Below, one piece after another: positions 26,014 through 56,719 of a stretch of 64,000 nucleotides of DNA. The translations under genes were made by a program, and so were the position numbers. Origin of the DNA: an uncultured Prevotellaceae bacterium (GTDB lineage Bacteria; Bacteroidota; Bacteroidia; Bacteroidales; Bacteroidaceae). Below the pieces are notes generated by a model, which saw only the letters and a program-made list of their open reading frames with translations, was not told the origin of the DNA and did not search any database. The number at the start of each line of letters is the position of its first letter. Positions within the stretch are counted from its first letter, which is position 1. Where the stretch lies: contig CACZBS010000003.1 in NCBI GenBank assembly GCA_902779455.1, positions 1 through 64,000 on the forward strand, given 5' to 3'.

Positions 26014-26014
26014 G

Positions 26015-26080: not shown

Positions 26081-26158
26081 TTGTCTTGTCTTCAGGAATC
26101 GCCAGAGGGGGCCAGTCCAAAGTGTCACTTTTATTGACAAAATGCGGACGACGGAAGG

Positions 26159-27392: not shown

Positions 27393-27426
27393 CTAGACGG
27401 TCTTCCCGCTGCGGATATAGCATTCC

Positions 27427-28146: not shown

Positions 28147-28162
28147 TTCGTAGTCCTCCGAG

Positions 28163-28963: not shown

Positions 28964-29002
28964 TTCTTTATCTAATTGAAGGTGGTAAGATAGTTGGTAA
29001 AG

Positions 29003-29058
29003 GGATCGGGGGGACGGTTCTTTGCCGAAACGAATCAATAGAACCGTCCCCCCCTGAT
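29003..29058. repeat. GATCGGGGGGACGG-family compact hairpin
   Basis: GGGGGGACGGTTCTTTGCCG and the complementary AATAGAACCGTCCCCCC form a hairpin. It touches the stop codon of the barrel gene (29059), where it could end transcription. Confidence 0.85.
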
Positions 29059-32903: not shown

Positions 32904-32911
32904 TCTGCCTG

Positions 32912-32943
32912 CAAAGATATGCTTTTTCGGCGAAACGGCCAAA
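32912..32943 (-). promoter_or_regulatory. Promoter of the TPR regulator
   Basis: On the minus strand TTTG (32940-32943) and TATCTTTG (32912-32919) are 20 bases apart. It ends nine bases before the start codon, so the transcript is nearly leaderless. Confidence 0.82.
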
Positions 32944-33003
32944 GGATGAAGGCGGAAAAGAGGGGGCATGAGCGGGTCTCGCCCCACGTCTCGCCTGTGG
33001 GGG

Positions 33004-33035
33004 TTTGAAATGGGCGGAAAAATGTCGTACCTTTG
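33004..33035 (+). promoter_or_regulatory. Orphan plus-strand promoter facing an antisense gene
   Basis: TTTG at 33004-33007 and TACCTTTG at 33028-33035 are 20 bases apart, a perfect consensus. No plus-strand gene follows; the next gene (33071-34393) is on the minus strand, so this would make antisense RNA. Confidence 0.7.
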
Positions 33036-33070
33036 CCGACGCAAAAAAAAGTGAAAAGTGAAAAATCTCT

Positions 33071-34433: not shown

Positions 34434-34683
34434 AAGTTAGAGACCCCTTCCCTTCTTGCGTCCCTTCGATAGCATGCGTCCTTCGGCCGAGCGGAAGGGA
34501 GGGATGTTGTACGTTTATTTGAAGTTAGAGACCCCACCCCCAACCCCTCCCCTTGAAGGGAGGGGAGCAGCTGCGCCGTCATCCCCGTCGGGCAGTGCGG
34601 CAGCCTCTCCCCTCCTTGGGAGGGGTCGGGGGAGGCTACTCCCCGCCCCTCAAGGGGAGGGGTTGGGGGTGGGGTCTGTAACT
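34434..34683. repeat. Compound GGGGTCT-family repeat block
   Basis: Two nested elements: an initial arm AGAGACCCCTTCCCTTCTTG with GGAAGGGAGGGATG, then a full copy from about 34523 (GTTAGAGACCCCACCCCC) to GGGGTGGGGTCTGTAAC. It fills most of the gap between the SusD gene and the DUF6055-like gene and may separate their expression. Confidence 0.82.
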
Positions 34684-34705: not shown

Positions 34706-34767
34706 ACGCTCAACTCTCAGTTCTCAACTCCCAGTTCTCAGTTCTCAACTCTCAGTTCTCAATTCCC
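34706..34767. repeat. TTCTCAACTCTCAG tandem repeats
   Basis: Units such as CAGTTCTCAACTCCCAGTTC are tandem here and again at 36489-36520 and, weakly, at 41460-41485. The last residues (GIEN) and the stop codon of the SusD gene are encoded by this repeat. Confidence 0.8.
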
Positions 34768-36488
34768 AAGTACCAGTTCTTCGTATCGCTAAGTTTCTGG
34801 AGTAGCGCAGCGTCGAGAGAGCCCTTGCGGCGGGCCACACGGCGGGCCAGATAGGAGGGGTCGGCCCGGTGCAGGGCCACACGCATGAGGTCGTAGAAGC
34901 GATAGCCCTCGAAAGCCAGCTCGAGCGCCTCCTCGTCGACGATGAGGTCCTCGACCTGCTCTATCTGGCTGGTCAGGTCGCCGTCGGCCTCGGGGAAGAG
35001 GTAAGCGGGGTTCTGGGCCGAGAAGCCGCTGCCGCGCGAATGGATGCCCATGGTGTTCTCGGTGGCCTGTCCGGCGCTGGTCTCGAGGATATACTGCGTG
35101 TTAGGGAAGTTGAACGTGCGGAGCCATGCCTCGTCGGCAGGATAGTAGGGCAGCACCTCGGTCTCCATGACGCTGTTGTTGACGCCCTGCTTGAGGATCT
35201 GGAAGGCGAAGCGTGGGAATCCGGCGCGGTTGAGGGCCTCGGCGAACCGCAGATAGACGGCGGCGCGGCGGAGGATATGGACGTTGCGCGTCTGATACTT
35301 AGAGAAGACGGCGTAGTGATCGATGCGCTTTCCGTCCTGGCGGATGAGCAGGTCAGAGCCGGTGGCCTCGGCATAAGCGGCTTGCAGCCGCAGGTCGCCC
35401 GTCAGCTCCGCCTTGAGTCCTTCGGGGGCGAGGATGTATTCGCCGCCGCTGGTGAACTGGCAATACTTCTGGGCAGCGGAGAGGCTTCGGATGGCCTGCG
35501 AGGGCTGGAGGCTGGACTGATACTCATTGTTCTCGGTGGTGTTGAACAGGTCGCGCAGCTGGCTGTAGTTGCCCTCCGAGGGGATGCTGTCGCCGGGAAT
35601 CATGGTGATGAGCTCGCCGTTCTGCATGTTGACCTCGCTTTGGAACATGACGCTCCATGAGTCGGACGTCGACATCCATCGCGAGTCGTTGTTCATGAAG
35701 CGGACGGCGTTGGTGGTGAGCGGATAGGCCGAGTTGGTGCCGCCGCGCGTGGCGATGTAGCGGTAGTAGCTCTCGGCTGCCTGGCGATACTGTCCTGACC
35801 AGAGGTAGAGGTCGCCCAGGAGGACATAGACGGGATAGTAGAACAGCTTGGAGTCGGTGTTGCGGATGGAGGCATAGCCAGGCGTCTCGACGGTGGCGTA
35901 GGGCGTGAGGTCGGCTATGAAGTAGCGGCACACCTCGCTGAGGTCAGCCATGAGGAAGTCGCGCTCGGAGTCGGCCTGGCTGAGGATGGGCTCGGTGATG
36001 AAGGGCACGCGGCCGTAGTTGAGCACCAGCTGCAGATAGGTCCAGGCGCGGAAGGCCTTGACGGCCGCATACTCCTTGCGGAAGATGAGCTCATGGCGGT
36101 TATCGCGCAGCGCGGTGTCGGCACGGGCGATGAAGAAGTTGCAGTTGTTGATGACGGCGTAGTAGTCGCGCGGCCGGTTATACTGGTTGTCGGCCGTGAC
36201 GCTGAAGTTGGCCATCTGGCGCAGGTCGGCCGACGCGTGGTCGGTCAGGTCGACGAGGTCGGCGCGCACCTCGCCGAGCAGGATGGTGCGGTCGGCCAGC
36301 ACCTGCATCTTGTTCATGATGCCGGCCATGGTCCATAGCGTGTCGGCATCGCTGTCGAGGGCGTGGTCCTCGGCGTAGATGTACTGGTCGGACTCCTCGT
36401 AGAGGAAGTCGCTGCAGGCGGTCAGCACCGACCCCATGACACAGGAGGCGAGTCCGGCAAAAAGATATTGATATGCTTTGGTAATCAT
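34752..36488 (-). CDS. SusD/RagB-family lipoprotein (second pair)
   Basis: A 578-residue surface lipoprotein (lipobox VLTAC, C25). SusD features: AFRAWTYLQLVLNYGRVPFI, YYPVYVLLGDLYLWSGQY TPR-like helices, RFAEALNRAGFPRFAF, and LELAFEGYRFYDLMRVALHR before the end. It would bind substrate at the mouth of the SusC partner encoded just upstream (37 bases). Start at the ATG at 36488 rather than the TTG nine bases upstream. The C-terminus runs into a TTCTCAACTC repeat, so a few residues may be replaced. It is the last gene of the eight-gene run. Confidence 0.93.
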   Translation of the reverse strand: MITKAYQYLFAGLASCVMGSVLTACSDFLYEESDQYIYAEDHALDSDADTLWTMAGIMNKMQVLADRTILLGEVRADLVDLTDHASADLRQMANFSVTADNQYNRPRDYYAVINNCNFFIARADTALRDNRHELIFRKEYAAVKAFRAWTYLQLVLNYGRVPFITEPILSQADSERDFLMADLSEVCRYFIADLTPYATVETPGYASIRNTDSKLFYYPVYVLLGDLYLWSGQYRQAAESYYRYIATRGGTNSAYPLTTNAVRFMNNDSRWMSTSDSWSVMFQSEVNMQNGELITMIPGDSIPSEGNYSQLRDLFNTTENNEYQSSLQPSQAIRSLSAAQKYCQFTSGGEYILAPEGLKAELTGDLRLQAAYAEATGSDLLIRQDGKRIDHYAVFSKYQTRNVHILRRAAVYLRFAEALNRAGFPRFAFQILKQGVNNSVMETEVLPYYPADEAWLRTFNFPNTQYILETSAGQATENTMGIHSRGSGFSAQNPAYLFPEADGDLTSQIEQVEDLIVDEEALELAFEGYRFYDLMRVALHRADPSYLARRVARRKGSLDAALLQKLSDTKNWYLGIEN

Positions 36489-36524
36489 AATTCTCAATTC
36501 TCAGTTCTCAATTCTCAATTTAGA

Positions 36525-39500
36525 CTACAGGTTGATCTTCACGCCGGCCACGAGCGAGCGGCTCTGACCGAGACGGCCCAGGTCGATGCCCTGGCCGATG
36601 ACGCTGCCGGTCATGGCGAACTCAGGATCGCTGCCCAGATAGCGCGAGAAGGTCAGCAGGTTGTTGGCCTGCACCCAGAACTGGAAGCCCTGCAGGAAGG
36701 TGGTGTGGAGGGGCAGCGTGTAGGAGAGGGTGACGGTCTTGAGCCTCAGGTAGGAGCCGTCCTCGATCCATCGGTCGCTGAAGCGGGCGTTGCCCATGGG
36801 GTCCTGGAAGGTGGCGCGTGGCACGTCGGTCAGCTGTCCCTCGGTCTGCCAGCGGCGGGTGAGCGTCGTGGTCTGGTTCATGAAGCGGCTGCCGCCCTCG
36901 AGCTGCGAGCGCAGATAGTTGTAGACGTCGTTGCCCAGCGAGTAGTTCAGGTTGACGTCGAGCCGGAAGCGCTTGTAGGCCATCGTGGTGAAGATGTTGC
37001 CATAGATGTCGGGGTTGGGGTTGCCGATCTCTACGCGGTCGGCGGCGGTGATCTCGTGGTCGCCGTCGAGGTCGGCAAAGTGGACGTCGCCGGCCGAGAA
37101 GCTGAGGTGGTCGATGCCATTGGCCGCGAGGAGATAGAGCCCGGCGTCGGCGGCTTCCTCCGACGTGGCGAAGACGCCGAGCGAGCGGTAGCCATAGAAC
37201 ATGTTGGCGGGCTGGCCGACAGCGGTGCGGATGGTGGCGCCGTAGAGGGTGTTCTCGATGGCCTGCTGGCCGCCGGAGAGCTTGGTGACGCGGTTGACGT
37301 AGTGGCCCACGCTGGCGCCCAGCTCCCACTGGAAGTCCTTCAGGGCGAGCACCTTGGCCGTGGCGCTGACGTCGAAGCCCTCGTTGCGCATGGCACCGCC
37401 GTTGGCCCAGTTGCGCTCCAGTCCGGTGACGTAGCGGAGCGACTGATACATGAGCAGGTTGTCGGTGGTGCTGCGGAAGTAGTTGAAGCGTACGTTGAGC
37501 CGGTTTTGGACGAAATTGCCTTCGAAGCCGGCGCTGAGTCGGCGCGTCGTCTCCCACTTCAGGCGGGTGTTGCCGATGTTGGCGAACGAGAGTCCCGAGA
37601 CGTCCTCGAGGAAGTTGTTGGAGCTGAAGTAGCTGCGGGCGGCGTTGTAGTCGAGGTCGTCGTTGCCGCTGACGTCATAACCGGCATTCAGCCGCAGGTA
37701 GTCGATGCCGCGGACGTCGGCAAACCAGGGCTCATTGGTCACGACCCATGCGGCCTGGACGCCGCCGAAGATGCCCCAGGGCACCTCGAAGAGCTTCACG
37801 GCGCCCGAAGCATCGGGTCCGAAGCGCGACGAGGTCTCGGCGGTCAGGTTGGCCTGCAGGTAGTAGCGCTGCAGATAGTCGTAGCTGGCCTGGGCGTACC
37901 AGGCGATGTTCTTCCACTTGTCGCTGTTGCCCGAAGTCTGGGCATGGTCGAGGCTGGAGCTGATGGCCGGCATCTTGTCGCTGCTGGTGTTGTAGCCCAG
38001 CTGCGAGCTGAGGGTGTAGCTCTCCCAGTTGAAACGGGCACCGCCGAAGACGCGGACGGCGTGGCCGGCGTAGCGGTTCTGCCAGTCGAGGCGCGTGTCG
38101 CTCATGACGGAGTTCTGCTTGCCGGCCATGGAGCGCACCTCGTTCTCGCAGTAGGCATTGACGCTGGAGACATAGTAGGCGGGTACGCCGTTCAGGGGGA
38201 TGTAGAACTTCTCGTTGGTGTTGACGAGGTTGTAGCTGAAGTGCTCAGAGAGCGTGAGGTGGGGATTGAACCGATACTTCGGGATGACGGTGAGGTTGAT
38301 CATCGAGTTCTCAAAGCGGTTCTTGTTCTCGGCGTCGCCATACTCATTGACGGCCAAGGGGTTGGCCAGCTTGTAGTTGTAGTTGGTGTAGTCGGCCAGG
38401 GCCTCGTTGAGATAGCTCTCGTCGCTGACGTCGATGTAGTTGTCGGAGATGCGGCCGCCGGCAAAGGTGTAGGGGCTGAGCATGGGGCTCTTGGCGTAGG
38501 CCAGGAAGGCGGCAGAGGTGGGCGTGCCCTCGGTATAGTCGGCCGGGGCTCCGTCGTTGCGCAGGTTGCGCTTCTGGTTGGCAAAGGAGGCGTCGAACCG
38601 CATGAGGAAGCGCTGCGTCAGGCGGATGTCGGAGTTGAAGCGGATGTTGAGCCGGTTCATGCTGTTCTGGCGCAGCGTGCTCTGGTTGGTGACGTAGCCG
38701 AGCGACAGGTTGTAGTCGGCCACGTCGTCGCCGCCCTCCACGTTGATGTTGTAGTTCTGGGTGACGGCCGTGCGGTAGACGTGGTCCTTCCAGTCGGTGT
38801 CGTTGTGATACTGAGGATAGTAATAGTAGCCGGGATCCTCATTGAGGAACTTGAAGTCCTTGATGGTGGTGCGGGTGGTCTGCAGCAGGTCGGAGGCATA
38901 GCTCTTGTATTGCGTGGCATCCATGACGTCGAGGAATTTAGGCTCGAGCGTAACGCCGGCCGAGAGGCTGGCGGTGATGCGGGTGGCCATGCTGTGGTTG
39001 CGGCGGGTGTTGATGAGGATGACACCGTTGGCACCGCGGGCGCCGTAGAGGGCTGTGCCGTTGCGGAGGACGTCGACGCTCTCGATGTCGGCCGGGCTGA
39101 TGTTGCTCAGGATGTCGTTGTAGAAGCCATCGTGGAGCGTCGAGCGGCCATACTGCTGGTCGAAGATGACGCCATCGACGACGATGAGGGGCTGGGCGTT
39201 GGCATAGAGCGAGCCCAGTCCGTTCATGAACATCACGCTGCCCACGCCGGGCGTGCCGTTGCGACTGACGGTGTGGACGCTGGCGCCGAGACGCTTCTGG
39301 ATCTCCTCCTCGATGGTCACGGCATTGGAGAAGCGGAAGTCGGAGGCCGACTCGCTGGCCGACACATTGGTCGTCGCGTCGTAGTCGGGGGTGAAGGCGG
39401 CAGGATAGAGCACGATGTCGGGCTGCTGCTCATGGGCCGACAGTCCGGTCCGGGTCAGGTTGAACTCAGGAGCGGAGACCTGGAGCGACGTGGCGAAGAG

Positions 39501-39770
39501 GGGCACGCGCAGCTCGTAGCTGCCGTCGTCCTCCGACAGGGTGCTGTAGCCGTCGACCTCGGCCACGCGGACCATGACGCCCGAGAGCGGCGCCTTGGTC
39601 GTGGCATCGAGCACGCGGCCACTGACCGTCCGGGTGGGATATTGCTTGCGGGGCTTCTCGGCCCGCTCGCGCTTGGGAGCTTCTGACAGTTCGCCGTCCT
39701 CGTCCTGGGCTGACAGGGGGGCAGCCTGGAACATGAGTGAGACAAGTGCGAAGATGAAATATCTGTTCAT
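36525..39770 (-). CDS. SusC/RagA TonB-linked outer-membrane protein (second pair)
   Basis: A 1081-residue receptor. A charged spacer (ERAEKPRKQYP) is followed by the carboxypeptidase-like domain TVSGRVLDATTKAPLSGVMV, the plug, and the SusC signature ESVDVLRNGTALYGARGANG. The barrel ends QSRSLVAGVKINL. It pairs with the SusD gene 36 bases downstream. The substrate cannot be inferred; no sugar-degrading enzymes are encoded in the unit. Confidence 0.93.
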   Translation of the reverse strand: MNRYFIFALVSLMFQAAPLSAQDEDGELSEAPKRERAEKPRKQYPTRTVSGRVLDATTKAPLSGVMVRVAEVDGYSTLSEDDGSYELRVPLFATSLQVSAPEFNLTRTGLSAHEQQPDIVLYPAAFTPDYDATTNVSASESASDFRFSNAVTIEEEIQKRLGASVHTVSRNGTPGVGSVMFMNGLGSLYANAQPLIVVDGVIFDQQYGRSTLHDGFYNDILSNISPADIESVDVLRNGTALYGARGANGVILINTRRNHSMATRITASLSAGVTLEPKFLDVMDATQYKSYASDLLQTTRTTIKDFKFLNEDPGYYYYPQYHNDTDWKDHVYRTAVTQNYNINVEGGDDVADYNLSLGYVTNQSTLRQNSMNRLNIRFNSDIRLTQRFLMRFDASFANQKRNLRNDGAPADYTEGTPTSAAFLAYAKSPMLSPYTFAGGRISDNYIDVSDESYLNEALADYTNYNYKLANPLAVNEYGDAENKNRFENSMINLTVIPKYRFNPHLTLSEHFSYNLVNTNEKFYIPLNGVPAYYVSSVNAYCENEVRSMAGKQNSVMSDTRLDWQNRYAGHAVRVFGGARFNWESYTLSSQLGYNTSSDKMPAISSSLDHAQTSGNSDKWKNIAWYAQASYDYLQRYYLQANLTAETSSRFGPDASGAVKLFEVPWGIFGGVQAAWVVTNEPWFADVRGIDYLRLNAGYDVSGNDDLDYNAARSYFSSNNFLEDVSGLSFANIGNTRLKWETTRRLSAGFEGNFVQNRLNVRFNYFRSTTDNLLMYQSLRYVTGLERNWANGGAMRNEGFDVSATAKVLALKDFQWELGASVGHYVNRVTKLSGGQQAIENTLYGATIRTAVGQPANMFYGYRSLGVFATSEEAADAGLYLLAANGIDHLSFSAGDVHFADLDGDHEITAADRVEIGNPNPDIYGNIFTTMAYKRFRLDVNLNYSLGNDVYNYLRSQLEGGSRFMNQTTTLTRRWQTEGQLTDVPRATFQDPMGNARFSDRWIEDGSYLRLKTVTLSYTLPLHTTFLQGFQFWVQANNLLTFSRYLGSDPEFAMTGSVIGQGIDLGRLGQSRSLVAGVKINL

Positions 39771-39803
39771 AATTGCTTGCAGTGGTTATCTTGAGATGAC
39801 ATG

Positions 39804-41456
39804 TTATTCGGCTTCTCTGTGGGGCCTGACGATGAGGCAGTCGAGACGCAGGGTGCTGGAGTGGGTCGACGTCTGGTTGGTCCGAACGTTAGAGCGGATG
39901 GCCACCTTGACGGCAGCGTCGGCCAGACCGTAGGAGCAGGTCGGGAAGGTGTAGTTGCTGACCAGCTGGACGGTGTCGACGACGTCAGGACGGGTCGTGA
40001 GGTCCTTGTTGTAGATGCGGCGGGCCTCGCGGCCGTTCTGGTCGCTCCAGTAGAGGGTGGTGCGGACGATGTTGGGCCGGGTGGTCTCGGCCACGGCGAG
40101 CGTGTCGTAGGCCGTGGCGGGGACGAAGACGGCATAGATGTCATAGCCGACGTTCGACAGGATGCCGGGAATCTTGTACTGCACGGTCACCTGGGCCGTG
40201 GCGGGGTCGGGCTGCACCTCGACAAACGTGTTGCCGGAGATCTTGCCGTAGAACGGATTGGTCGAGACGACCTCGCGCACCACCAAGGGCTCGACGGCAT
40301 TGATGACGGTGTCCTGCGACTGGATGGCCTCGGCCTCGACCTTCACCGTCTGCAGGAAGGTCTCATACTTCGAGATGCGGAAATCGTTGGCCTTGAGCAC
40401 GTGGCCGTTGCTGCACAGGATGTCGTCGGCACCATGGAACACGCCGCCGGCGTCGAAGGGCCGGAAATAAGTGTAATAGGGATAGTCGTTGCCCATCAGG
40501 GCGCGCACCAGCGACGAGGGGGCACTGGTCGACACGGCGGAGTCGCGGAAGGCTACGTCGGGATTGACGGTGCGGCTGAAGATGGTGCCGCTGATGATGG
40601 CCTGACGGGTGCCGACGCGGAACATGGAGTCGCGCCGCGCCACGTTGTTAGGATAATTGAAGTAGGGCTCATACTCCGCCAGCAGCCTGCTCCACTCGGC
40701 GTTGGTGGGGCAGACCATCCAGTAGGTGCTGTCCTCGGAATTGATCAGGCCCAACGCATTGAGCAGGGGGTTCACCAGGACTGACACCGAGTCGAGATAG
40801 ACGGTCTGGCCGTCGACGATCTCGCCCGGCACACTCTTCGTCTCGTCGAACTCATAGACGGTATAGCTGTTGAGGAACTGATAGACGCTGTCGAGCTCGC
40901 TGTCGTGGCCCAGGTATTCGAAAACGTTGGGGAAATAGTCGAGCTTGCGGTCGATGGTGAACAGAAGGCCATTGTCGCAGAGGGCATTCGAAGCCAGCAA
41001 CTGCCGATTGCCCATGTGGGTGTGGGTGAGCACCTCGTACTTGCTGTTCATCATCACGACGGAGTCCTGGGTGAGCGACGACACGGGGTGGCGATAGAGC
41101 GCGATGTGGTTCTGCAGGAACTGGCGCACGACGGTGTTGTCGTTCGGACGGGTGCCGGCGGCCTGCTGACGGCGGAACTCGGCTATCAGGCTGTCGGCCT
41201 CGGCAGCAGTGAAGGTGGCGTCGGTGGGGGCAAAGACGGAATAGGTCTGACTGCCGTCCAGCACGACGTCGTAGCCACAGGCCTCGACGACGCGAGCAAA
41301 CTGAGTCAGGTCGCCGTGGGTGGAGATGGTCTGCCAGAGCGTGCCGTCGCCGGCGGCCATCGGTTCGTAGTGGTCGTTCCACTCTTCGGAACATCCGGCG
41401 AAGGCTATGCCTGCCAGAAGGGCTGCGCAGATATGTCTGATATATTTGTATTTCAT
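39804..41456 (-). CDS. Fasciclin-domain lipoprotein
   Basis: A 550-residue lipoprotein (lipobox AFAGC, C22, then acidic SEEW). An N-terminal fasciclin (FAS1) domain shows TYSVFAPTDATFTAAEADSL and VVRQFLQNHIALYRHPV. A second, diverged copy may start near TYWMVCPTNAEWSRLL. The C-terminal third (VQPDPATAQVTVQYKIPGI ... STLRLDCLIVRP) is a beta domain seen at the end of other proteins in this unit. FAS1 domains mediate adhesion or ligand binding; surface placement fits the acidic signal after the lipid-anchored cysteine. Confidence 0.85.
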   Translation of the reverse strand: MKYKYIRHICAALLAGIAFAGCSEEWNDHYEPMAAGDGTLWQTISTHGDLTQFARVVEACGYDVVLDGSQTYSVFAPTDATFTAAEADSLIAEFRRQQAAGTRPNDNTVVRQFLQNHIALYRHPVSSLTQDSVVMMNSKYEVLTHTHMGNRQLLASNALCDNGLLFTIDRKLDYFPNVFEYLGHDSELDSVYQFLNSYTVYEFDETKSVPGEIVDGQTVYLDSVSVLVNPLLNALGLINSEDSTYWMVCPTNAEWSRLLAEYEPYFNYPNNVARRDSMFRVGTRQAIISGTIFSRTVNPDVAFRDSAVSTSAPSSLVRALMGNDYPYYTYFRPFDAGGVFHGADDILCSNGHVLKANDFRISKYETFLQTVKVEAEAIQSQDTVINAVEPLVVREVVSTNPFYGKISGNTFVEVQPDPATAQVTVQYKIPGILSNVGYDIYAVFVPATAYDTLAVAETTRPNIVRTTLYWSDQNGREARRIYNKDLTTRPDVVDTVQLVSNYTFPTCSYGLADAAVKVAIRSNVRTNQTSTHSSTLRLDCLIVRPHREAE

Positions 41457-41494
41457 ATAAAACTATGAACTAAAAACTTTGAACTAAGAACTGT

Positions 41495-43537: not shown

Positions 43538-43557
43538 AGATAGTTGTCTCCTTATAG

Positions 43558-45327: not shown

Positions 45328-45355
45328 AGTTACTCTTTCTTCAAAAACAGTCTGA

Positions 45356-48300
45356 TTAGAAGTCAACACTCACGCCCAGCGTATAGGACTTGGCACGGGG
45401 GGTCTGGCCACCGTCGACAGCAGCCCCATAGCCGCCGTAGGACACCTCCGGGTCGACACCCTTGTACTTGGTCAGGATGAAGAGGTTGTTGGCACTGGCA
45501 TAGAAGCTCAGACGGCTGATGCCCAGCGCCTTCTTGATGACCTTCGGGTCGAACGAGTAGGACAGCTGCATGTAGTTCAGGCGGAGGAACGAGCCGTCCT
45601 CGACGAAGCGGTCGCTGATGAGCGTGTTGTAGTTGGTCGAGCTGCCGTACATGGCGCGGGGGATGCTGGTCTGGTCGCCCTCTTTGCGCCAGCGGTAGTT
45701 GACGGCCTTCGTCTGGTTGTTGTTGCTGATCATGGCCTCGCCGTCGAGCCGTGCCAGGTTCAGGATCTTGTTGCCCACGCGGTAGTTGAACTGCGTGTTG
45801 AGCTTCCATCGGGCGTAGTTCAGGGTGAAGCCGAAGCCACCCGTCAGCTTGGGCAGCGAACTGCCTAGGTAGACGATGTCGAGGGCGTTGATGTCGCCGT
45901 CGTTGTTGATGTCCTCATAGATGGCGTCGCCACCGTTGAAGAGGTAGTTCTTGCCGACGCCGTCGTGGGTGTAGTTGTACATCATGTGGACGGGATTGCC
46001 CTCGTCGTCGATGATGACGTTGCCGTTCTTGTCGAAGGCAATAGGGGCCGTATGGCCGGCGGCAAGGAAGGCCTCGCGCTCCTGCGGCGTCATGTCCTGG
46101 AAGGTCTCATACTGGTATTCGTAGACGCCCTTGTAGCGGAATCCGTAGATGGCGCCGAAGGGATTGTGGAGCTGCACGCGCTGCAGCACCTCGCGGTTGC
46201 CGAAGTAGAACTCCGAGTTGAGGGCCGAGAGGACGGTCTCGTCCATCGAGAGGATCTCGTTCTGGTTGTTGCCGAACGTCATGTTGATGTCAGCGTAGAA
46301 CTTGCCCTTCTGGAAGATGCGGTTGGTGTTCAGGTTCAGCTCCCAGCCGATGTTGCGCATGGAGCCGACGTTGCGATAGGCCAGTGTGTAGTAGCCCGTG
46401 CTCGAGGGGATGCTCACGTCGCGCATCAGCATGTCGCGGCGCGTGGAGTGATACCACTCGGCCTGCAGCGTCAGTTTGTCGTCGAACAGACCCAGGTCGA
46501 CACCGATGTCGTAGGTCGACGTCGTCTCCCAGCGCAGGTCGGTCAGGCGGATGTTGTCGGGCTGCATGGCGCCCATGTCGAGATAGCGCGTACCCTGGCT
46601 GTAGATGCTCTCATAGAGATAGTCGCGGTCGGGCTGGTTGCCCACGCGGCCCCAGCTGGGACGCAGGGACAGCATCGAGAGCCACTTCTCCGTGCCCTTC
46701 ATCCAGGGCTCGTCGACGATGTTCCAGCGCAGCGACACGGCGGGGAAGTAGCCCCAGCGGCGCTCGGGTCCGAACTTCGTGGTGCCGTCGGCACGCACGG
46801 AGAAGTCGAGCATGTAGCGGCTCTTGTAGGCGTAGTGCGTCGAGAAGGTGTAGTACATCGACCGCCACTGGCTGAAGTTGGAGCTCATGCCCGTCACCTT
46901 GCCGCCGGCAAAGGGTGTGGTGATGCCGCCTGATGGCAGCTTGGTGGCGTCGGTGCCCTGTCCGTTGGAGCTGCCCGACGTCAGTTCGAAGCGTCCCATG
47001 GCCATGAGCGAGTGGTCCTTGTTGGCGAAGTGGGGGATGAACGTCAGCGTCTGCTTGGTGTTGAAGGCGACGCTCTTCGTCGAACCCGTATAGGCATTGT
47101 TCACGCCGTTGTTCCACGACACGGTGACCAGCTCCTTGGGATAGAACTTGTCGATATACTCGTTGAAGATGTTCATGTAGACGCGGCCCTGCCAGTTCAG
47201 CTGGTGGTGCTCCTCGTCCATGCCCAGCAGGCGGTAGTTCAGCTCGAACTCGGGCGTGATGTCGTAGGTGCGGTCGTCGAACTTGGCCAGATGGGCCGAG
47301 GCCACCGGGTTGACGTAGACGCGCTGGTCGTCCTTGAACACGTCGGGGGCCGACTGCAGCATCGTGTAGTACTTATAGGTGTTCTCGCCCGTCACGGGGT
47401 CCTGCTCGTAGATGCTCATGTTGGGCATCTTGTGGTAGGCGATGGCCAGCAGGTCGTCGTAGTTCTTGTTGTTCTTCGTGTAGGTCATCGAGAAGTTGGT
47501 CGAGATCTTGATGCGGTCGCTGACGTAGTAGTCGAGGGCCACACGGGTGGAGAATCGGTTGAGCTTCTGCTTGATGACCGAACCCGTCTCGTGGTCGAAA
47601 CCGCCCGAGATGCGGAAGGTGGCCTTCTCGCCGCCGCCGGTCAGCGAGAGGTAGTGGTTCTGGCGCAGACCCCACTGCGTGACGGCGTCCACCCAGTCGG
47701 TGTTGTTGTTATACTGCTCGTATTCGGAGAACGTGGGGTCGTAGTTCAGCTCGCGGATGTTCGAGGCGTTGTCGTTCTGCTCGGGATTGAAGTAGGACTC
47801 CTTCAGCAGCATCGTGTAGTCATTGCCGTTGAGCATCTTGTAGCCCTCGGGCTGGTAGGTGCTGGTCAGTCGGAGCGAATAGGTCAACTTCGGCGTGCCG
47901 CGCGAGCCGCGCTTCGTCGTGATCTCGATCACGCCGTTAGCGCCCTGCGAACCGTAGATGGCCGTGGCGGCAGCATCCTTCAGCACCGTGATTGAGGCGA
48001 TGTCCTCGGGGTTGACGTTCAGCAGCTGTGCGAACTGCTCGTCGTTGGCATTGGTCAGGTCGAAGTTGGTCATGTCCACATTCCACGTGTTGCCGTTGAC
48101 GACGATGAGCGGGTTCGAGCTGGTCAGCGTGCTGATCGACGAGGCACCGCGCAGTCGCATGGTGGTGCCGGCGCCCAGGTTGCCCGAGATGGCCACGATG
48201 TCGAGGCCGGCGATGCGTCCCTGCAGGGCTTCGTCGACGGTGGTCAGTCCCAGGCCCTCAAACTCCTTCATGTCGATGGTCTGCGTGGCGAACGATATCT

Positions 48301-48703
48301 CGCGCTCCGGGATAGGCAGTCCGCCGCTGTTCAGCTTCTTCTTGGCCGTGACGGTGACCTCCTTGATCTGCGTCTGCGAGGCGAGCTTGACGTTGAACGT
48401 CTCGCGGTTAATGGGCAGCGTCTGCGTCCGGCAGCCCACATAGCTGAAGCGCACCTTGTCCTTCGGGTTGCGGATGGACATGGAGAAGTGGCCGTTGACG
48501 TCAGTGACGGTGGCCTCGATGATACGTCCGCTGGCGTCGATCTCGCAGACCGAGGCTCCCATCAGCTCGCCCATCTCGTCGGTGACGGTGCCGTGGATGG
48601 CTTTGATTTGTGCGCTTGCAGCGCTAATGAACAACGTAGAATGGATGATGAACAGACTGACGATCCTGATCCATCTGCCTTGTAATATTGCTTTTGTCTT
48701 CAT
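45356..48703 (-). CDS. SusC/RagA TonB-linked outer-membrane protein (first pair)
   Basis: A 1115-residue receptor. Signal peptide ending SAASAQ, carboxypeptidase-like domain (HGTVTDEMGELMGASVCEID), plug start (IKEVTVTAKKKL), and SusC signature ASITVLKDAAATAIYGSQGA. The end KSYTLGVSVDF is a normal last strand. The pair works with the SusD encoded 28 bases downstream. Confidence 0.94.
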   Translation of the reverse strand: MKTKAILQGRWIRIVSLFIIHSTLFISAASAQIKAIHGTVTDEMGELMGASVCEIDASGRIIEATVTDVNGHFSMSIRNPKDKVRFSYVGCRTQTLPINRETFNVKLASQTQIKEVTVTAKKKLNSGGLPIPEREISFATQTIDMKEFEGLGLTTVDEALQGRIAGLDIVAISGNLGAGTTMRLRGASSISTLTSSNPLIVVNGNTWNVDMTNFDLTNANDEQFAQLLNVNPEDIASITVLKDAAATAIYGSQGANGVIEITTKRGSRGTPKLTYSLRLTSTYQPEGYKMLNGNDYTMLLKESYFNPEQNDNASNIRELNYDPTFSEYEQYNNNTDWVDAVTQWGLRQNHYLSLTGGGEKATFRISGGFDHETGSVIKQKLNRFSTRVALDYYVSDRIKISTNFSMTYTKNNKNYDDLLAIAYHKMPNMSIYEQDPVTGENTYKYYTMLQSAPDVFKDDQRVYVNPVASAHLAKFDDRTYDITPEFELNYRLLGMDEEHHQLNWQGRVYMNIFNEYIDKFYPKELVTVSWNNGVNNAYTGSTKSVAFNTKQTLTFIPHFANKDHSLMAMGRFELTSGSSNGQGTDATKLPSGGITTPFAGGKVTGMSSNFSQWRSMYYTFSTHYAYKSRYMLDFSVRADGTTKFGPERRWGYFPAVSLRWNIVDEPWMKGTEKWLSMLSLRPSWGRVGNQPDRDYLYESIYSQGTRYLDMGAMQPDNIRLTDLRWETTSTYDIGVDLGLFDDKLTLQAEWYHSTRRDMLMRDVSIPSSTGYYTLAYRNVGSMRNIGWELNLNTNRIFQKGKFYADINMTFGNNQNEILSMDETVLSALNSEFYFGNREVLQRVQLHNPFGAIYGFRYKGVYEYQYETFQDMTPQEREAFLAAGHTAPIAFDKNGNVIIDDEGNPVHMMYNYTHDGVGKNYLFNGGDAIYEDINNDGDINALDIVYLGSSLPKLTGGFGFTLNYARWKLNTQFNYRVGNKILNLARLDGEAMISNNNQTKAVNYRWRKEGDQTSIPRAMYGSSTNYNTLISDRFVEDGSFLRLNYMQLSYSFDPKVIKKALGISRLSFYASANNLFILTKYKGVDPEVSYGGYGAAVDGGQTPRAKSYTLGVSVDF

Positions 48704-48718
48704 TGCGTAGCTCCTTTA

Positions 48719-51334
48719 TCATTCATTATTAGCGCGTAGCGCGTCGATCTCGTCCTGCCATTTGGTCAGCTGCGCCGACTCGTAGAACAGCGGGCCGTCG
48801 ATCTGGTGGACCACCAGGTCAGAAGCGTTGTAGAGCTGGGTGGAGTTGACGTTGTTGGCATTCTGGATCCAGTATTCGCGGCCGATGATGTTGTAGTTGT
48901 CGCCTTTGACGACCGTGCGGGTGTTGCCCAGCTGGTCGGTGACGGTGAGGCGGTCGTCGTCGGCATTGACGGTGACGCTGAAGAAGCGGTTGTTCAGCGG
49001 GTTGAGGGTCGACGTCTCATACTTGACGTTCGTGGTCGGCTCGCCGCCGATGAAGACCGAGTTGTCCTGGATGTGATACTTCATGAAGTTGAGGATGCGG
49101 TTGGCCACCAGCGTGCGGGCCTGCTTGAGCAGCGAGGCGTTGCCGCCGAACTGCTCGGCCGTCAGGTTCTCATAGTCGCTCCAGTCGGGCAGGATGCCCT
49201 CCGCGTGGAGCCGCTCGATCTCGGCATCCGTGGGGACGTAGACCGTGTAGTTGTAGGCATCGAAGAGGCTGCAGTTGTAGTCGGCGCAGGTGAAGCTGCT
49301 CATGCGGGCCTTCAGCAGCGTGTTGGCCGAGCCGCCGTTGTAGAGCAGGCTGAAGAACCGGTTGCAGTCGTCGCGGCCGTTGAGGATGGAGTAGAGCGAA
49401 CGGCGGCTGGTGAGCGGCATCGTCTCTTCGACGACGTATGACTTGCCGTTGCCCGTGCGGGTCTGGTCGTAGATATTGGCCACGGTGATGGGTCGCTCCG
49501 TCTCGATCTGATAGCCGCCGGCGAGGGTCATCGCGCCCTCCTGTCCGGCGTGCTCCACCTTGATGACGCTGCCGCCCTTGGTGCGGTAGTAGGTGTGTCC
49601 GTCCTCGATATTGCCGACGATGATGAGGTTGTCCATCAGGTCGCGCAGGCGGTTCTGCACCTGCGCGTCGCTGGCATCGTTGAGCTCGGTGGCTCCTTCG
49701 ATGATCTGATGGCTGTTCAGGTCGTAGTTGTAGCGGTGGGCGCGCACCGTCTTGTAGTCGGTGTCATAGTAGAACTCATAGAGGATGGCGGTCGAGTTGC
49801 CGTATGTGCAGGGGTCAATGTACTGCAGCATGGCCGTGTTCGTTGGGATGATGAAGCTGTAGTAGGAGTCCATGGAGTTGAGGTATGGCTCAAACTCCAG
49901 TTTCTCGATGGCCCAGTAGATGACGTTCATGGTCTGCTCGTTGACCAGTGCCGGGAACGACACGGAGGCATAGGCGGCCGGCGTGAAGACGCGGTTGAGC
50001 TGGTAGACCACGCCGTTGCAGCCCATGAAGCAGCTGTCGACGTGGGCCGTGGTAATGCCGATGGGCACCTTCGTGGTGTTGTCGACGATGTTCTTGAACT
50101 TCGAGGGCACGGTCTCGGTGAACGAGCGGATGAGATTGATGTCGAGCATCTTCACCAGCACCTTCATCGGCACGTTCTCCCACGCCCCGTACATGTCCTG
50201 CAGCACGCGGCCGTCGTGGTTCCACCAGTCGTCAAGTGCTGCGTTGCTCGGCACGAGCAGTGCGCCGGCGTCGTAGTGGAGGTCGCGTCCGGCCGTGTTG
50301 GTGTACATGTACTGGCTCCATCCCGGGTCGAAGCTGAGCGTGGCGTCGACGACGTTGCCATCGGGGTCGGTGTTCAGCTCGCCGCCCGATGATGCGCCGT
50401 ATTGGCCCGTATTGCTGGTCGACGAGAAATACTTCAGCGTGAAGACCGAGTCCTCATTATTATACAGTCGGTTGTATTCCTTCGTGGCGGCCTCGTCGTA
50501 GTAGGGGGCACAGAAGCGGTCGAGGAGCGAGGCGAAGAGCGACATGTCGGCATGGTTGTGGATGATCTCAGCCATGTTGTCGGCCGCCGTGGCCAGTCCG
50601 TCGACCTTGTGGATATAGCCGTTCTTGCAGGTAATGTCGGTCTCGATGAGCTTTCGACCGTTCACCCACGAGTCATTGATCGACTGCGAGGCGCCGTTGG
50701 TCAGGATGGCGAGGTCGCCGTCGGTGATATTGTTCTTGCGCATGAAGACGGGCAGGAAGTGGATCATCGGCTTCGACGTGTTGTCGCGCAGCAGCACGAG
50801 GCCCTCCCGGCGGTCACGATGCTTAGCCCAGAAGGGGGTGTTAGGCATCTCGTCAGGATAGATCCTCGAGATGGAGTCGAACACCGAGGCGGCCGTCTCG
50901 CGGCGCATGCACTGGCCCCTGAGTGGCGGGTTGCCGCTGACGTTGCTGAGCAGCTCCACCAGGTAGGCATTGTTGACCATGGCGCTGTTCAGGAGCAGCT
51001 TCTTCTGCGCCGCCGTCAGGTCGTCGTAGCGGCTGACGCCCCATGCGTTCGAGGCGAAGAAGTTGTCGTAGACGGCATCGTCGGCCGCAAAGAGCGTCTT
51101 GCTGCCCGTCTGGCTGAGCACTTCCTTCTGGCCCAGGTCGTCGATGAGCCGCAGGGTGTAGCTGAAGTGGCCGTCGTCCTGCAGCCGCTCATAGATGGAG
51201 TTGCCCAGCCACGAGGGGTCGTCCATGAGTTCGTCCTTGTCGCACGACGCCGTCATGGCCGACAGGGCGAGGAGACAGGCTGGCAGTAAGGCTCTGGTCC
51301 AGCCCTTGTCCCATTTCTGTTGTTTCGTCTTCAT
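48719..51334 (-). CDS. Large fasciclin-domain lipoprotein
   Basis: An 871-residue lipoprotein (MTASC, C31, then acidic DKDELMDD). Several FAS1-like segments occur: SKTLFAADDAVYDNFFASN near residue 80, YYSFIIPTNTAMLQYIDP in the middle, and YTVYVPTDAEIERLHAEG followed by NRILNFMKYHIQDNSVFIGG near the end. It precedes the first SusC by 15 bases and follows the DUF6055-like gene by 26 bases. Confidence 0.85.
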   Translation of the reverse strand: MKTKQQKWDKGWTRALLPACLLALSAMTASCDKDELMDDPSWLGNSIYERLQDDGHFSYTLRLIDDLGQKEVLSQTGSKTLFAADDAVYDNFFASNAWGVSRYDDLTAAQKKLLLNSAMVNNAYLVELLSNVSGNPPLRGQCMRRETAASVFDSISRIYPDEMPNTPFWAKHRDRREGLVLLRDNTSKPMIHFLPVFMRKNNITDGDLAILTNGASQSINDSWVNGRKLIETDITCKNGYIHKVDGLATAADNMAEIIHNHADMSLFASLLDRFCAPYYDEAATKEYNRLYNNEDSVFTLKYFSSTSNTGQYGASSGGELNTDPDGNVVDATLSFDPGWSQYMYTNTAGRDLHYDAGALLVPSNAALDDWWNHDGRVLQDMYGAWENVPMKVLVKMLDINLIRSFTETVPSKFKNIVDNTTKVPIGITTAHVDSCFMGCNGVVYQLNRVFTPAAYASVSFPALVNEQTMNVIYWAIEKLEFEPYLNSMDSYYSFIIPTNTAMLQYIDPCTYGNSTAILYEFYYDTDYKTVRAHRYNYDLNSHQIIEGATELNDASDAQVQNRLRDLMDNLIIVGNIEDGHTYYRTKGGSVIKVEHAGQEGAMTLAGGYQIETERPITVANIYDQTRTGNGKSYVVEETMPLTSRRSLYSILNGRDDCNRFFSLLYNGGSANTLLKARMSSFTCADYNCSLFDAYNYTVYVPTDAEIERLHAEGILPDWSDYENLTAEQFGGNASLLKQARTLVANRILNFMKYHIQDNSVFIGGEPTTNVKYETSTLNPLNNRFFSVTVNADDDRLTVTDQLGNTRTVVKGDNYNIIGREYWIQNANNVNSTQLYNASDLVVHQIDGPLFYESAQLTKWQDEIDALRANNE

Positions 51335-51360
51335 ATCTGACTTTGATGTTATGTGCTATT

Positions 51361-53676
51361 TTATCGTTTGACGGTTATTTTCACACTCGACGTCTCGCTG
51401 CCGTTGAGGCCCTGCAGGACGTAGATGCCGGGCGCGATGTCCGAAGGGATCAGGTAGTCGCCGTCGCGCATAAAACTCTGCTGGCTGACCAGCTGGCCGG
51501 CCTGGTTGTACAGGCGCACAGGCACCTGCAGCTGCGAGGCGGCGGCGATGTGCAGGGGCACGCGCTCGCCGCGCCTGACGACCATCCGTTCGGGCGTGAT
51601 GGTGAAGCGGGCCGACGGCTGGTCAGCCATGAGGGCCTCGTCGATGCCGTTGATGAACTCGGTGTCGCGGATCGTCGAGCGGTAGTTATACCACTTCAGC
51701 TGGGCCTTGGCGGGCTGATAGACGCCCTCGCCCATACGCAGCCGGTAGTCGAAGTGCTTCTTGCGCGTCTCCTCGCCCTTATATATATAATCGGTGTTGC
51801 AGACGACGGCAATCACGACGTTGTTGGCCGGCACGCCCTGCAGCTCCATCATGACGTCGCCCTCGCCCTCGACGGGCTGCGAGTAGAAGATCTTGCCCTG
51901 CTTGGTGCGATAGCAGAGCATGCACACCATGTTCTGCCCCAGCGGCTTGAAGTGCAGGCTGACCATCGTGCCGACGGCGCCCTTGACGTGCAGCGGCACC
52001 TGGTTGGCACCGCTCCATCCGGGCGTCGTGCGCCACTCGGGGCGCCACCAGCCGGCGCTGTCGACCTCGTCGCAGCGATACATATTGGCATAGGGCGTGG
52101 CCAGCCAGGGGGCGACCTTCTTCCAGTAGGGGGTCCACTCCTGCTCGACCCTCAGCAGCCAGTTGTCGTCGAGCAGCTTGCGGCAGGCCGTCGACCATTG
52201 GCCCACGTCGATCATGGCCTGGCGGGCGCGATATTCCAGGATGAGGCGGCGCATCTGGCTGTCGCCCAGCGAGTCGGCCATGCCGTCGAGCACGCGGTTC
52301 TTGCAGTAGCGCCATATCCAGGGGATGGAGCCGCGGCCCAGGATCTCGCTGACGAAGTGGGGGAAGAGCTCGCCATACTGCACGCCGCCGAGCATGTTGC
52401 GCCAGGTGCAGATCTGTCCGGAGGCGCCGTACATGTTGACGCCCTCGGCCGACGGACCGCCGAACGTGTCGTCGAGCAGCCACCCCGAGTAGCACTCGAT
52501 GGGCATGAACGGGGCAATCATGTTGCCGGCACTCAGGTAGCCCATGCTCGTGGGCGTCTTGCCGCTCTTGACGAGCTCGGCCTCGCCCTGCAGCCACGTG
52601 TTGCCGGCCTCCTGATACCAGGCGGAGTTCTTGCACCCCTCCAGGTCGGCAAAGATGGCGTGGATGCCCTCATGGACGCAGGCGTTCTGCTGGAACGTCT
52701 GGTCGGTGACGGCGTGTTTCCCGTTGGGATTCGTGTCGTAGGTGAAGTCGGGGTCGAAGCAGGCGATGGGGTAATAGCTGATGTTGACCATCGGCCACGA
52801 CGAGCCATTATACCACGTGGCACCCTGCCATCCGCCCGTGGCATACATGTCGGCATTGTCGCTGTAGAGACCGCTGCCGTAGACGTAGACCGTGCTGTAG
52901 TATCCGTTGCGGGCGCGCTTGTCGGGCGGCCACCCCATGACGTCGCGGAAGAAGGCGAAGTCCTCGTTCATCTTGTCGAGCAGGCCCTGCTTGGCCGTCT
53001 CGGTGACGTAGGGGTTGGTCTTCGGTCCCCATGCCACGGCCCACCAGCCGTCGGCCTTGTAGCCCTTGATGTTGTTGTTTTCGGGCAGCATCCGTGTGGG
53101 CGGATCGAGAGCGGGGTATTCGCTGCGATAGTCGTAGGAGAGTGTCGGCGAGTAGGCCGGCCACTTGTAGGGCACCGTCGGGTCGGCATAGCCGAAGATG
53201 CGCAGCTCGCGGATGCCGCAGGCCTTGTCGCTCCGCATGTAGATGCGCAGCCGCTCGGCCGAGAGGTCGACGTCGGTCTTCGACACCTGCTTGTCGTCGG
53301 CCGCATTGAGGCTGGGGCCCTGCTGCCACTCGCTGCCGTCCCACCAGGAGACGTAGGCATCGGTGGGCAGCGCCAGGCGGTCGTCGGCGGTGGCCCAATA
53401 GACGCGTATCTCGCGGTAGACGTTCTGCTGCGCCCACGTGAGCTCCACGTATTCGTATTGCCCCAGGTGGTCGTCGCCGTGATAGCTGCTCCAGTAGTTG
53501 CTCTCCGTCGTGCGGTTGTCGCTGACGAGGCTGACGGGGTGACCCTCGTCGCTGGCCGACGCCTCGATGCTGGCGGCCTTCACCGTAAGGTTGGTCAGCG
53601 TCTGCCCCACCGTCATGTGCGGCATGGCGAAGCACGCAATGATGGCCATCATGGCAGCAAGTGTAGTATGTCTCAT
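51361..53676 (-). CDS. DUF6055-like HExxH protein with discoidin-like domain and type IX tail
   Basis: A 771-residue exported protein, first gene of the eight-gene run. Signal peptide ending MTVGQT; an F5/8 discoidin-like domain (VSLVSDNRTTESNYWSS ... YVELTWAQQNVYREIRVYWA); a central region with HEGIH at residues 335-339 (CVHEGIHAIFADLEG); a beta domain (ANQVPLHVKGAVGTMVSL) resembling that of the gene at 33071-34393; and a C-terminal type IX-type sorting domain (VRLYNQAGQLVSQQSF ... PGIYVLQGLNG). It would be secreted by the type IX system to the surface. Start at the ATG at 53676; upstream in-frame ATGs overlap the promoter. Confidence 0.85.
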   Translation of the reverse strand: MRHTTLAAMMAIIACFAMPHMTVGQTLTNLTVKAASIEASASDEGHPVSLVSDNRTTESNYWSSYHGDDHLGQYEYVELTWAQQNVYREIRVYWATADDRLALPTDAYVSWWDGSEWQQGPSLNAADDKQVSKTDVDLSAERLRIYMRSDKACGIRELRIFGYADPTVPYKWPAYSPTLSYDYRSEYPALDPPTRMLPENNNIKGYKADGWWAVAWGPKTNPYVTETAKQGLLDKMNEDFAFFRDVMGWPPDKRARNGYYSTVYVYGSGLYSDNADMYATGGWQGATWYNGSSWPMVNISYYPIACFDPDFTYDTNPNGKHAVTDQTFQQNACVHEGIHAIFADLEGCKNSAWYQEAGNTWLQGEAELVKSGKTPTSMGYLSAGNMIAPFMPIECYSGWLLDDTFGGPSAEGVNMYGASGQICTWRNMLGGVQYGELFPHFVSEILGRGSIPWIWRYCKNRVLDGMADSLGDSQMRRLILEYRARQAMIDVGQWSTACRKLLDDNWLLRVEQEWTPYWKKVAPWLATPYANMYRCDEVDSAGWWRPEWRTTPGWSGANQVPLHVKGAVGTMVSLHFKPLGQNMVCMLCYRTKQGKIFYSQPVEGEGDVMMELQGVPANNVVIAVVCNTDYIYKGEETRKKHFDYRLRMGEGVYQPAKAQLKWYNYRSTIRDTEFINGIDEALMADQPSARFTITPERMVVRRGERVPLHIAAASQLQVPVRLYNQAGQLVSQQSFMRDGDYLIPSDIAPGIYVLQGLNGSETSSVKITVKR

Positions 53677-53736: not shown

Positions 53737-53768
53737 CAAAGATACATCTTTTTTTGAGTATCTGCAAG
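53737..53768 (-). promoter_or_regulatory. Promoter of the fasciclin/SusCD operon
   Basis: On the minus strand CTTG (53765-53768) precedes TATCTTTG (53737-53744) by 20 bases. It lies 60 bases upstream of the first gene. No operator or binding site for a regulator is recognisable. Confidence 0.72.
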
Positions 53769-56587: not shown

Positions 56588-56719
56588 ATTGTGCGCAGCC
56601 ACTCCCCTCCCCTCCAAGGGGAGGGGTCGGGGGTGGGGTCTGTATATTCTTTACGCGGAAATAGTTAGAGACCCCACCCCCTACCCCTCCCCTTGAAAGG
56701 GAGGGGAGCGGCTGCGCAT
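56588..56719. repeat. GGGGTCT-family inverted repeat with fixed loop
   Basis: GCGCAGCCACTCCCCTCCCC ... and the complement ending GGAGCGGCTGCGCA flank the loop GTATATTCTTTACGCGGA. The loop is the same as in 17531-17642. Together with smaller pieces to its left it fills 56490-56800, where no gene is seen. Confidence 0.85.

What the first reader, a model, noticed from the sequence alone, without database searches (positions are those of the whole stretch)
34752..53676. Eight-gene operon: DUF6055-like HExxH protein, three fasciclin lipoproteins and two SusCD pairs
Eight minus-strand genes with gaps of only 15-38 bases follow one promoter (53737-53768). The order is HExxH/type IX protein, fasciclin lipoprotein, SusC, SusD, fasciclin, fasciclin, SusC, SusD. 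No glycoside hydrolase, lyase or sulfatase is present, so it is not an ordinary polysaccharide locus. A second DUF6055-like HExxH gene (33071-34393) follows, and the DUF4859 protein diverges from the other end. Inference: a surface uptake or adhesion system for a proteinaceous or glycoprotein ligand, with fasciclin lipoproteins as accessory binding subunits of the SusCD transporters.
Basis: partly seen in the sequence, partly recalled or inferred. Interest (0 to 1): 0.8.

Follow-up and report, generated by a model that had tools for sequence, protein, structure and literature searches.

The report
Fasciclin-bearing double SusCD uptake locus
A gut bacterium carries genes for two outer-membrane nutrient importers packed together with three adhesion-type surface proteins, in an order also found in distantly related bacteria, and in this copy the set is paired with likely protein-cutting enzymes instead of sugar-cutting ones.

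Summary
The operon is real. Its core is a seven-gene module, Fas1-SusC1-SusD1-Fas2-Fas3-SusC2-SusD2. This genome holds five copies. The order through SusC2 is kept in 65 of 67 testable loci fetched by Fas1 similarity. All seven genes stand in order in 8 of 11 chosen stretches from other families of the class. My searches of an open-licence library found no paper describing it.

Several sister copies sit among pectin or arabinan enzymes. The window copy belongs to a Prevotella-type clade where two HExxH proteins are conserved with the module: HE (predicted CBM32-like domain, gluzincin-like motif, possible type IX tail) and DUF6055. DUF4859 and a hybrid two-component regulator are conserved too; the window's regulator ortholog lies at 18726-22631. 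HE, DUF6055 and DUF4859 recur together beside another SusCD without FAS1. Fas2 is predicted as two FAS1 domains plus a CBM35-like domain.

Best reading: a SusCD-type utilisation locus with FAS1 lipoproteins as surface-binding subunits, here probably specialised for a plant cell-wall glycoprotein or protein-linked glycan. Synteny is shown; ligand, complex and peptidase activity are inferred.

The parts
51361..53676 (-). HE: secreted HExxH protein; predicted N-terminal CBM32-like domain, HEGIH-x16-E motif, possible type IX C-terminal tail
48719..51334 (-). Fas1: 871-aa fasciclin lipoprotein, first gene of the seven-gene module
   Evidence: Pfam Fasciclin whole-protein 34.2 bits; alignment with four own-genome copies
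45356..48703 (-). SusC1: TonB-dependent SusC-type transporter
   Evidence: Plug and carboxypeptidase-regulatory-like domains; similar to solved SusC homologs
43558..45327 (-). SusD1: SusD lid lipoprotein
   Evidence: SusD_RagB E 1.6e-23
41495..43537 (-). Fas2: lipoprotein predicted as two FAS1 domains plus a CBM35-like C-terminal beta-sandwich
   Evidence: Pfam; model pLDDT 88.9; matches to solved structures
39804..41456 (-). Fas3: fasciclin lipoprotein with an additional C-terminal region
   Evidence: Fasciclin 30 bits; alignment
36525..39770 (-). SusC2: second, distinct SusC
   Evidence: Plug domain
34752..36488 (-). SusD2: second SusD lipoprotein
   Evidence: SusD_RagB E 7.9e-9; homologs in 22 of 22 related genomes searched
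33071..34390 (-). Short DUF6055 protein (HELGH), conserved downstream gene of the locus
   Evidence: DUF6055 E 5.9e-101; close homolog downstream of SusD2 in 13 of 17 relatives
53984..56416 (+). DUF4859 protein, divergent from HE
   Evidence: DUF4859 E 4.2e-44, four stretches; divergent in 20 of 24 HE-bearing loci
18726..22631 (+). Hybrid two-component system (Reg_prop, Y_Y_Y, histidine kinase, receiver, AraC-type HTH), ortholog of the regulator beside this locus in relatives
53737..53768 (-). Promoter region with a TAnnTTTG element at 53737-53744
   Evidence: sequence read; consensus recalled

Best explanation
This is a SusCD-type nutrient utilisation locus built on a conserved seven-gene outer-membrane module: two SusCD importers and three FAS1 lipoproteins. 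The FAS1 lipoproteins occupy the place of surface glycan-binding proteins; at least Fas2 is predicted to carry a carbohydrate-binding-module fold. They most likely capture a large plant-wall ligand and hand it to the two SusCD pairs. In sister copies that have CAZymes, these would cut a pectic or arabinan chain. In the window clade the cutting step is probably done by two metallopeptidase-like proteins: HE, predicted CBM32-like, secreted and possibly cell-attached through type IX secretion, and DUF6055. The imported product would then be a glycopeptide or a glycan freed from protein, for example from arabinogalactan-protein or extensin. A hybrid two-component regulator would sense the import product and switch the locus on. 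Shown: gene content, fixed order across taxa, clade-specific linkage of HE, DUF6055, DUF4859 and the regulator, and conservation of the HExxH motifs. Inferred: surface complex, peptidase activity, ligand, regulation.
For: Five copies in one genome. Order Fas1-SusC1-SusD1-Fas2-Fas3-SusC2 in 65 of 67 testable loci, with at most 270 bases between open frames of the module. Seven-gene order in 8 of 11 distant stretches, two more lacking Fas3. Pectin or arabinan enzymes beside sister copies. HE upstream of Fas1 in 23 of 70 loci with enough upstream DNA; the 22 HE rows of a 73-row tree all lie in one clade of 28, 6 changes against 19.0 in shuffles, 0 of 500 as low. Short DUF6055 downstream in 13 of 17 and the regulator in 12 of 17 relatives. 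HE, DUF6055 and DUF4859 adjacent to a SusCD pair without FAS1 in L227. HEGIH-x16-E in 23 of 23 aligned HE proteins and 12 of 12 further relatives. Fas2 model with CBM35-like C-terminus; HE N-terminus CBM32-like. T9SS sortase in the genome.
Against: The HE catalytic region is modelled poorly (block means of pLDDT 30-46 over residues 341-440), so its fold is unproved. The one DUF6055 paper seen calls the domain functionally uncharacterised. HE also occurs away from SusCD: 10 of 12 other stretches examined show none within the DNA fetched, so it is not exclusive to the system. Six of 28 clade members lack HE beside Fas1, three of them while keeping DUF4859. The regulator is of the glycan-PUL type; GH127 and GH97 lie about 17-20 kb from the operon's promoter end and a GH2 gene lies near one relative's copy (L057), which leaves a glycan ligand open. 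The window regulator is about 10 kb from the DUF6055 gene.
Confidence: 0.5

Rival explanations
1. It is simply a pectin, rhamnogalacturonan-I or arabinan PUL whose CAZymes are encoded elsewhere; HE and DUF6055 are ancillary enzymes and the ligand is protein-free glycan.
For: Sister copies sit with GH28, GH106, GH115, PL11, PL4, GH51, GH43; hybrid two-component regulator; CBM-like folds in Fas2 and HE; GH127 and GH97 beyond the window end.
Against: In the HE loci the genes found repeatedly beside the module are HE, DUF6055, DUF4859 and the regulator; GH51 at 60% coverage is in 0 of 23 HE loci against 20 of 47 others. Only a few neighbours of the HE loci were scanned with Pfam.
Confidence: 0.3
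2. It is a general peptide or protein importer like RagAB, with HE and DUF6055 as ordinary digestive peptidases and the FAS1 proteins binding protein.
For: Two HExxH families; an M61 peptidase gene downstream in L166 and an M16 peptidase gene beside an HE gene in L224; RagA is among the solved-structure matches of SusC1.
Against: Carbohydrate-binding folds in Fas2 and HE, sister copies in glycan loci, glycan-type regulator.
Confidence: 0.13
3. An adhesion system: the FAS1 lipoproteins attach cells to plant fibre and SusCD is only linked by position.
For: FAS1 domains act in adhesion in other organisms (review PMC6032426, passages seen), and PMC10199937 reads a highly expressed FAS1 protein of a symbiont as adhesion (passage seen).
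Against: Fixed order with two SusCD pairs across families argues for one uptake function.
Confidence: 0.07

Closest known systems
B. theta PUL BT4240-50: M60-like O-glycopeptidase BT4244 with SusCD BT4246-47 and SGBP BT4245 (PMC11992087, passages seen)
   Same: SusCD pair, surface peptidase with CBM32, surface binding lipoprotein, proposed glycopeptide import.
   Different: One SusCD pair, no FAS1 named, DUF1735-CBM32 SGBP, GH2 and GH109 present, another peptidase family, mucin ligand.
Glycan PULs with SusCD, surface glycan-binding proteins and hybrid two-component regulators (Sus-like systems, utilisomes; PMC7618045, start of abstract in a search listing only; rest recalled)
   Same: SusC and SusD, extra surface lipoproteins, regulator type.
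   Different: Three FAS1 lipoproteins and two different SusCD pairs in fixed order; no CAZyme in the window operon.
RagAB and BT2261-2264 peptide-type SusCD (recalled; RagA and BT2264 are structure matches of SusC1)
   Same: SusCD with possible peptide cargo and, for BT2261-2264, extra lipoproteins (recalled).
   Different: No FAS1 and no CBM-bearing HExxH partner in what I recall.
DUF6055 (PF19527), linked with peptidase family M106 in PMC11241649 (passage seen)
   Same: 33071-34393 is a member; HE shares a distant post-catalytic segment.
   Different: HE itself does not reach the family in Pfam.

Membership tests
SusCD-type polysaccharide utilisation locus | adjacent susC and susD | tested here: met
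   two pairs
SusCD-type polysaccharide utilisation locus | CAZymes in the locus | tested here: not met
   none among the ten window proteins scanned nor the six others (the rest of the window was not scanned); nearest seen are GH127 and GH97 beyond the window end. Sister copies do have them
SusCD-type polysaccharide utilisation locus | linked regulator (hybrid two-component system) | tested here: met
   ortholog beside the locus in 12 of 17 relatives; in the window about 10 kb from the DUF6055 gene
SusCD-type polysaccharide utilisation locus | induction by and growth on a glycan | not testable with these tools
   no expression data
Fasciclin (PF02469) | score over the curated cut-off | tested here: met
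   Fas1 34.2, Fas2 49.4, Fas3 30 bits against 22; Fas1 has no single stretch over threshold
Fasciclin (PF02469) | FAS1 fold | tested here: met
DUF6055 (PF19527) | 33071-34393 over the cut-off | tested here: met
   338.9 bits against 27
DUF6055 (PF19527) | HE over the cut-off | tested here: not met
   no match at E<=0.1; HE relative in L227 17.8 bits, below 27; profile comparison P 2.5e-5 over 90 columns after the catalytic part
Gluzincin metallopeptidase | HExxH with a downstream Glu ligand | tested here: met
   HEGIH-x16-E in 23 of 23 and 12 of 12; the signature is recalled
Gluzincin metallopeptidase | catalytic fold | tested here: inconclusive
   low pLDDT in that region; structure rows cover mainly residues 25-168
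Gluzincin metallopeptidase | metal-dependent proteolysis | not testable with these tools
   bench assay needed
Type IX secretion cargo | C-terminal sorting domain over cut-off | tested here: not met
   HE Por_Secre_tail 13.8 against 27 bits
Type IX secretion cargo | T9SS machinery in the genome | tested here: met
   sortase NF033707 over the cut-off; other components not searched

The most novel reading that the evidence does not exclude
The seven genes encode a distinct compound outer-membrane machine of this bacterial class, in which two different SusCD importers and three FAS1 lipoproteins are obligate partners. In the Prevotella-type clade of the window it has been converted from a pectin importer into a glycopeptide importer by exchanging CAZymes for an undescribed CBM32-HExxH peptidase family together with DUF6055 and DUF4859.
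Probability: 0.35. Interest if true: 0.8.

Novelty: new variant of a known kind. Interest (0 to 1): 0.62.

Why it matters
SusCD systems are a main way Bacteroidota feed. A fixed two-importer, three-FAS1 module that recurs several times in one genome and across families would be a new architecture of such systems. It would give bacterial FAS1 lipoproteins a concrete role in nutrient capture, help annotate rumen Prevotella loci whose FAS1, DUF6055 and DUF4859 genes are unassigned, and offer testable candidates for microbial attack on plant cell-wall glycoproteins.

Tried and rejected
Chance neighbourhood: rejected by conserved order. HE as a plain DUF6055: not supported at Pfam level; a global profile alignment with DUF6055 failed and only a local post-catalytic segment aligned, with shallow profiles, while comparisons of HE with the fasciclin profiles A2, A3 and A5 gave P 0.13 or worse. 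Solved relative of HE by sequence: one weak hit, E 0.53. HE catalytic fold by structure search: the Foldseek and VIA rows were filled by the N-terminal CBM32-like domain, so nothing is claimed for the catalytic part. A general FAS1 search of the phylum (112 of 247 genomes) listed many short FAS1 ORFs first and was not used for synteny. In one search, 10 of 19 distant loci taken by score were other FAS1 proteins without SusC or SusD within 1.5 kb; I count these against any claim that FAS1 in general goes with SusCD. A count of GH51 by any hit was inflated by a region shared with the 1200-aa protein and was replaced by a 60% coverage count. A lipoprotein-signal count over relatives depended on the start codons chosen and is not used.

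Literature: searches showed no paper that describes FAS1 with SusCD. Searches returned no paper. Searches (175 papers; 539; 721, swamped by words such as 'susceptible') were seen only as capped lists. PMC10199937 reports a highly expressed FAS1 protein and SusCD pairs in one symbiont but, in the passages seen, does not link them. PMC2668756 mentions fasciclin among adhesion domains. One search gave one DUF6055 paper, none for DUF4859. The Flavobacterium pectin study PMC8056085 looked relevant, but the passages seen do not name fasciclin and its supplements could not be read. The library holds open-licence papers only.
Full report
1. The observation. Window 34752-53676 holds eight minus-strand genes with gaps of about 15-38 bases (likely ATG starts chosen by reading the translations). 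Pfam confirms SusC and SusD twice and Fasciclin three times. The first gene, HE, has HEGIH but no Pfam match except a sub-threshold type IX tail. The gene downstream, 33071-34393, is a true DUF6055 gene, and 53984-56416 is a divergent DUF4859 gene. Fas1, Fas2, Fas3, SusD1 and SusD2 each have a lipoprotein-type Cys near the N-terminus (read by eye).

2. A seven-gene module. A Fasciclin search of the window's own genome gave 12 matches. Reading the flanks showed Fas1-SusC1-SusD1-Fas2-Fas3-SusC2-SusD2 five times: C3 (the window), C1:36046-52085, C6:74103-91515, C35:16965-34014 and C25:28048-44023. Fas1 copies are 20-49% identical to the window's, Fas2 21-52%, Fas3 18-45%. In C25 the gene in Fas3 position was not hit by single-sequence search, so its assignment rests on position and on the alignment.

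3. Conservation in relatives. A Fas1 profile found 355 relatives in named genome contigs; the best 80 were kept as L052-L131, mostly Prevotella or Prevotellaceae assemblies from ruminants, with isolates such as Hallella seregens, Prevotella sp. P3-122, Paraprevotella xylaniphila, Marseilla massiliensis and Xylanibacter rodentium. In a family sample 101 of 151 genomes carry Fas1 relatives. Order, counted on stop-to-stop frames in loci with enough DNA: to SusC1 75 of 75, to SusD1 71 of 71, to Fas2 71 of 71, to Fas3 69 of 69, to SusC2 65 of 67; the two deviations (L092, L096) carry Fas2 twice and the fetched stretch ends inside Fas3. Neighbouring copies of one name were merged in this count. Inside the module no gap between open frames exceeds 270 bases, so no extra gene is hidden (the one larger gap listed, in L116, lies before Fas1). 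The loci were chosen by Fas1 similarity, and the profiles had been enlarged with these loci, with profiles from the five own copies, shows the same orders.

4. Distant families. A Fas2 profile over 395 Bacteroidota genomes matched 160, largely through FAS1 domains. Of 19 non-own loci returned in score order, 9 have SusD next to the Fas2-like gene, including the top 7; the other 10 have neither SusC nor SusD within 1.5 kb (its profiles included distant members, those did not). Eleven larger stretches were fetched, nine of them because two matches lay about 7 kb apart, so this is a selected set. In 8 of 11 stretches (7 genomes, families f3 and f5) the full seven-gene order is present; in 2 of 11 (f3 and f2) Fas3 is missing; in 1 of 11 there is no SusCD.

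5. What the sister copies sit with. The C6 copy is followed by GH115, GH106, GH2, an esterase, GH28, GH97 and rhamnogalacturonan lyase PL11, with another PL11-type gene upstream. The C1 copy lies by GH95, GH43, GH3, FG-GAP and GDSL genes. Among the 47 named loci without HE, GH51 at 60% coverage or more is present in 20 and a roughly 1200-aa protein without Pfam match in 35. Distant copies have GH28, a SASA esterase and rhamnogalacturonate lyase (G007), a GDSL-SASA esterase (G150), GH2 and an FGGY kinase (G033), GH95 and GDSL (G423). By context the module is tied to pectic or arabinan ligands in several lineages. The C25 copy showed no CAZyme among the few neighbours scanned, and C35 has an M6 peptidase gene upstream.

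6. The window clade. HE lies upstream of Fas1, within 430 bases, in 23 of 70 loci with at least 2.6 kb upstream and in 24 of 80 in all; DUF4859 diverges in 20 of those 24, and three loci (L054, L072, L073) have DUF4859 without HE. On a Fas1 tree of 73 rows (22 with HE) all HE rows fall in one clade of 28; 6 changes are needed against a shuffled mean of 19.0, 0 of 500 shuffles as low. It is a quick tree; own-genome copies C1, C6 and C25 have long branches, and two HE loci (L084, L091) were left out because their Fas1 is split or partial. Downstream DNA was fetched for 17 of the 24 HE loci: a short DUF6055 gene follows in 13 of 17 and a hybrid two-component regulator in 12 of 17. In one of the four without the short DUF6055 gene downstream, it lies on the other side of the locus (L062). 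The window's regulator at 18726-22631 is 48-60% identical over its length to those 12, so it belongs to the system although it is displaced. A long DUF6055 gene and a CotH gene occur on the DUF4859 side in 7 and 5 of 23 HE loci and in 0 of 47 others (limited by flank length); orthologs lie beyond the window at C3 66400-68529 and 69252-70643.

9. Mechanism and comparison. The best model is capture by FAS1 lipoproteins, cutting by HE and DUF6055, import by two SusCD pairs, and regulation by the hybrid system. The closest described precedent for the logic is BT4240-50, where a CBM32-bearing M60-like O-glycopeptidase is proposed to feed glycopeptides to SusCD (PMC11992087, passages seen). The window system differs in its FAS1 subunits, doubled SusCD and peptidase family. 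Ligand, activity and complex formation are inference. The literature searches showed no description of this module, within an open-licence library and partly capped lists.

Noticed in passing
window 10200-10286, 17536-17636, 18509-18629, 34544-34662, 56605-56705, 61407-61428: Dispersed palindromic repeat CCCCTCCCCTTGAAGGGAGGGG, 11 matches with up to 3 mismatches against 0.00 expected; ten form five inverted pairs 65-99 bases apart. One pair lies just upstream of the regulator, one between SusD2 and DUF6055, one after DUF4859.
   Followed up: partly
window about 34001-34087, inside 33071-34393: In-frame insert of 29 residues, with inverted-repeat DNA, in the short DUF6055 gene; absent from the other 12 aligned sequences.
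   Followed up: partly
window 26001-30000: Low-GC island (41-45% against about 60%) with small unknown ORFs between the displaced regulator and the operon; it may mark the insertion that separated them.
   Followed up: no
window 31284-33044: TPR protein with a lipoprotein-like N-terminus, a membrane segment and a C-terminal HTH-like region, the last three read by eye.
   Followed up: no
window 57695-59791: Secreted protein with a sub-cut-off PI-PLC X match and a C-terminal dockerin domain.
   Followed up: no
C35:12990-16682 (L020 from 12990, continued in L012), L104:1972-5580: About 1200-aa secreted protein with no Pfam match, present in 35 of 47 loci without HE; shares a region with the C-terminus of the GH51 protein.
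   Followed up: partly
L017 (C25:44287-52753): The divergent C25 copy is followed at once by a third SusCD pair and a DUF4959 protein.
   Followed up: no
L224:16082-17989, L014:12803-14743: CotH kinase domain fused to DUF4859; the L014 DUF4859 part is below its cut-off.
   Followed up: no
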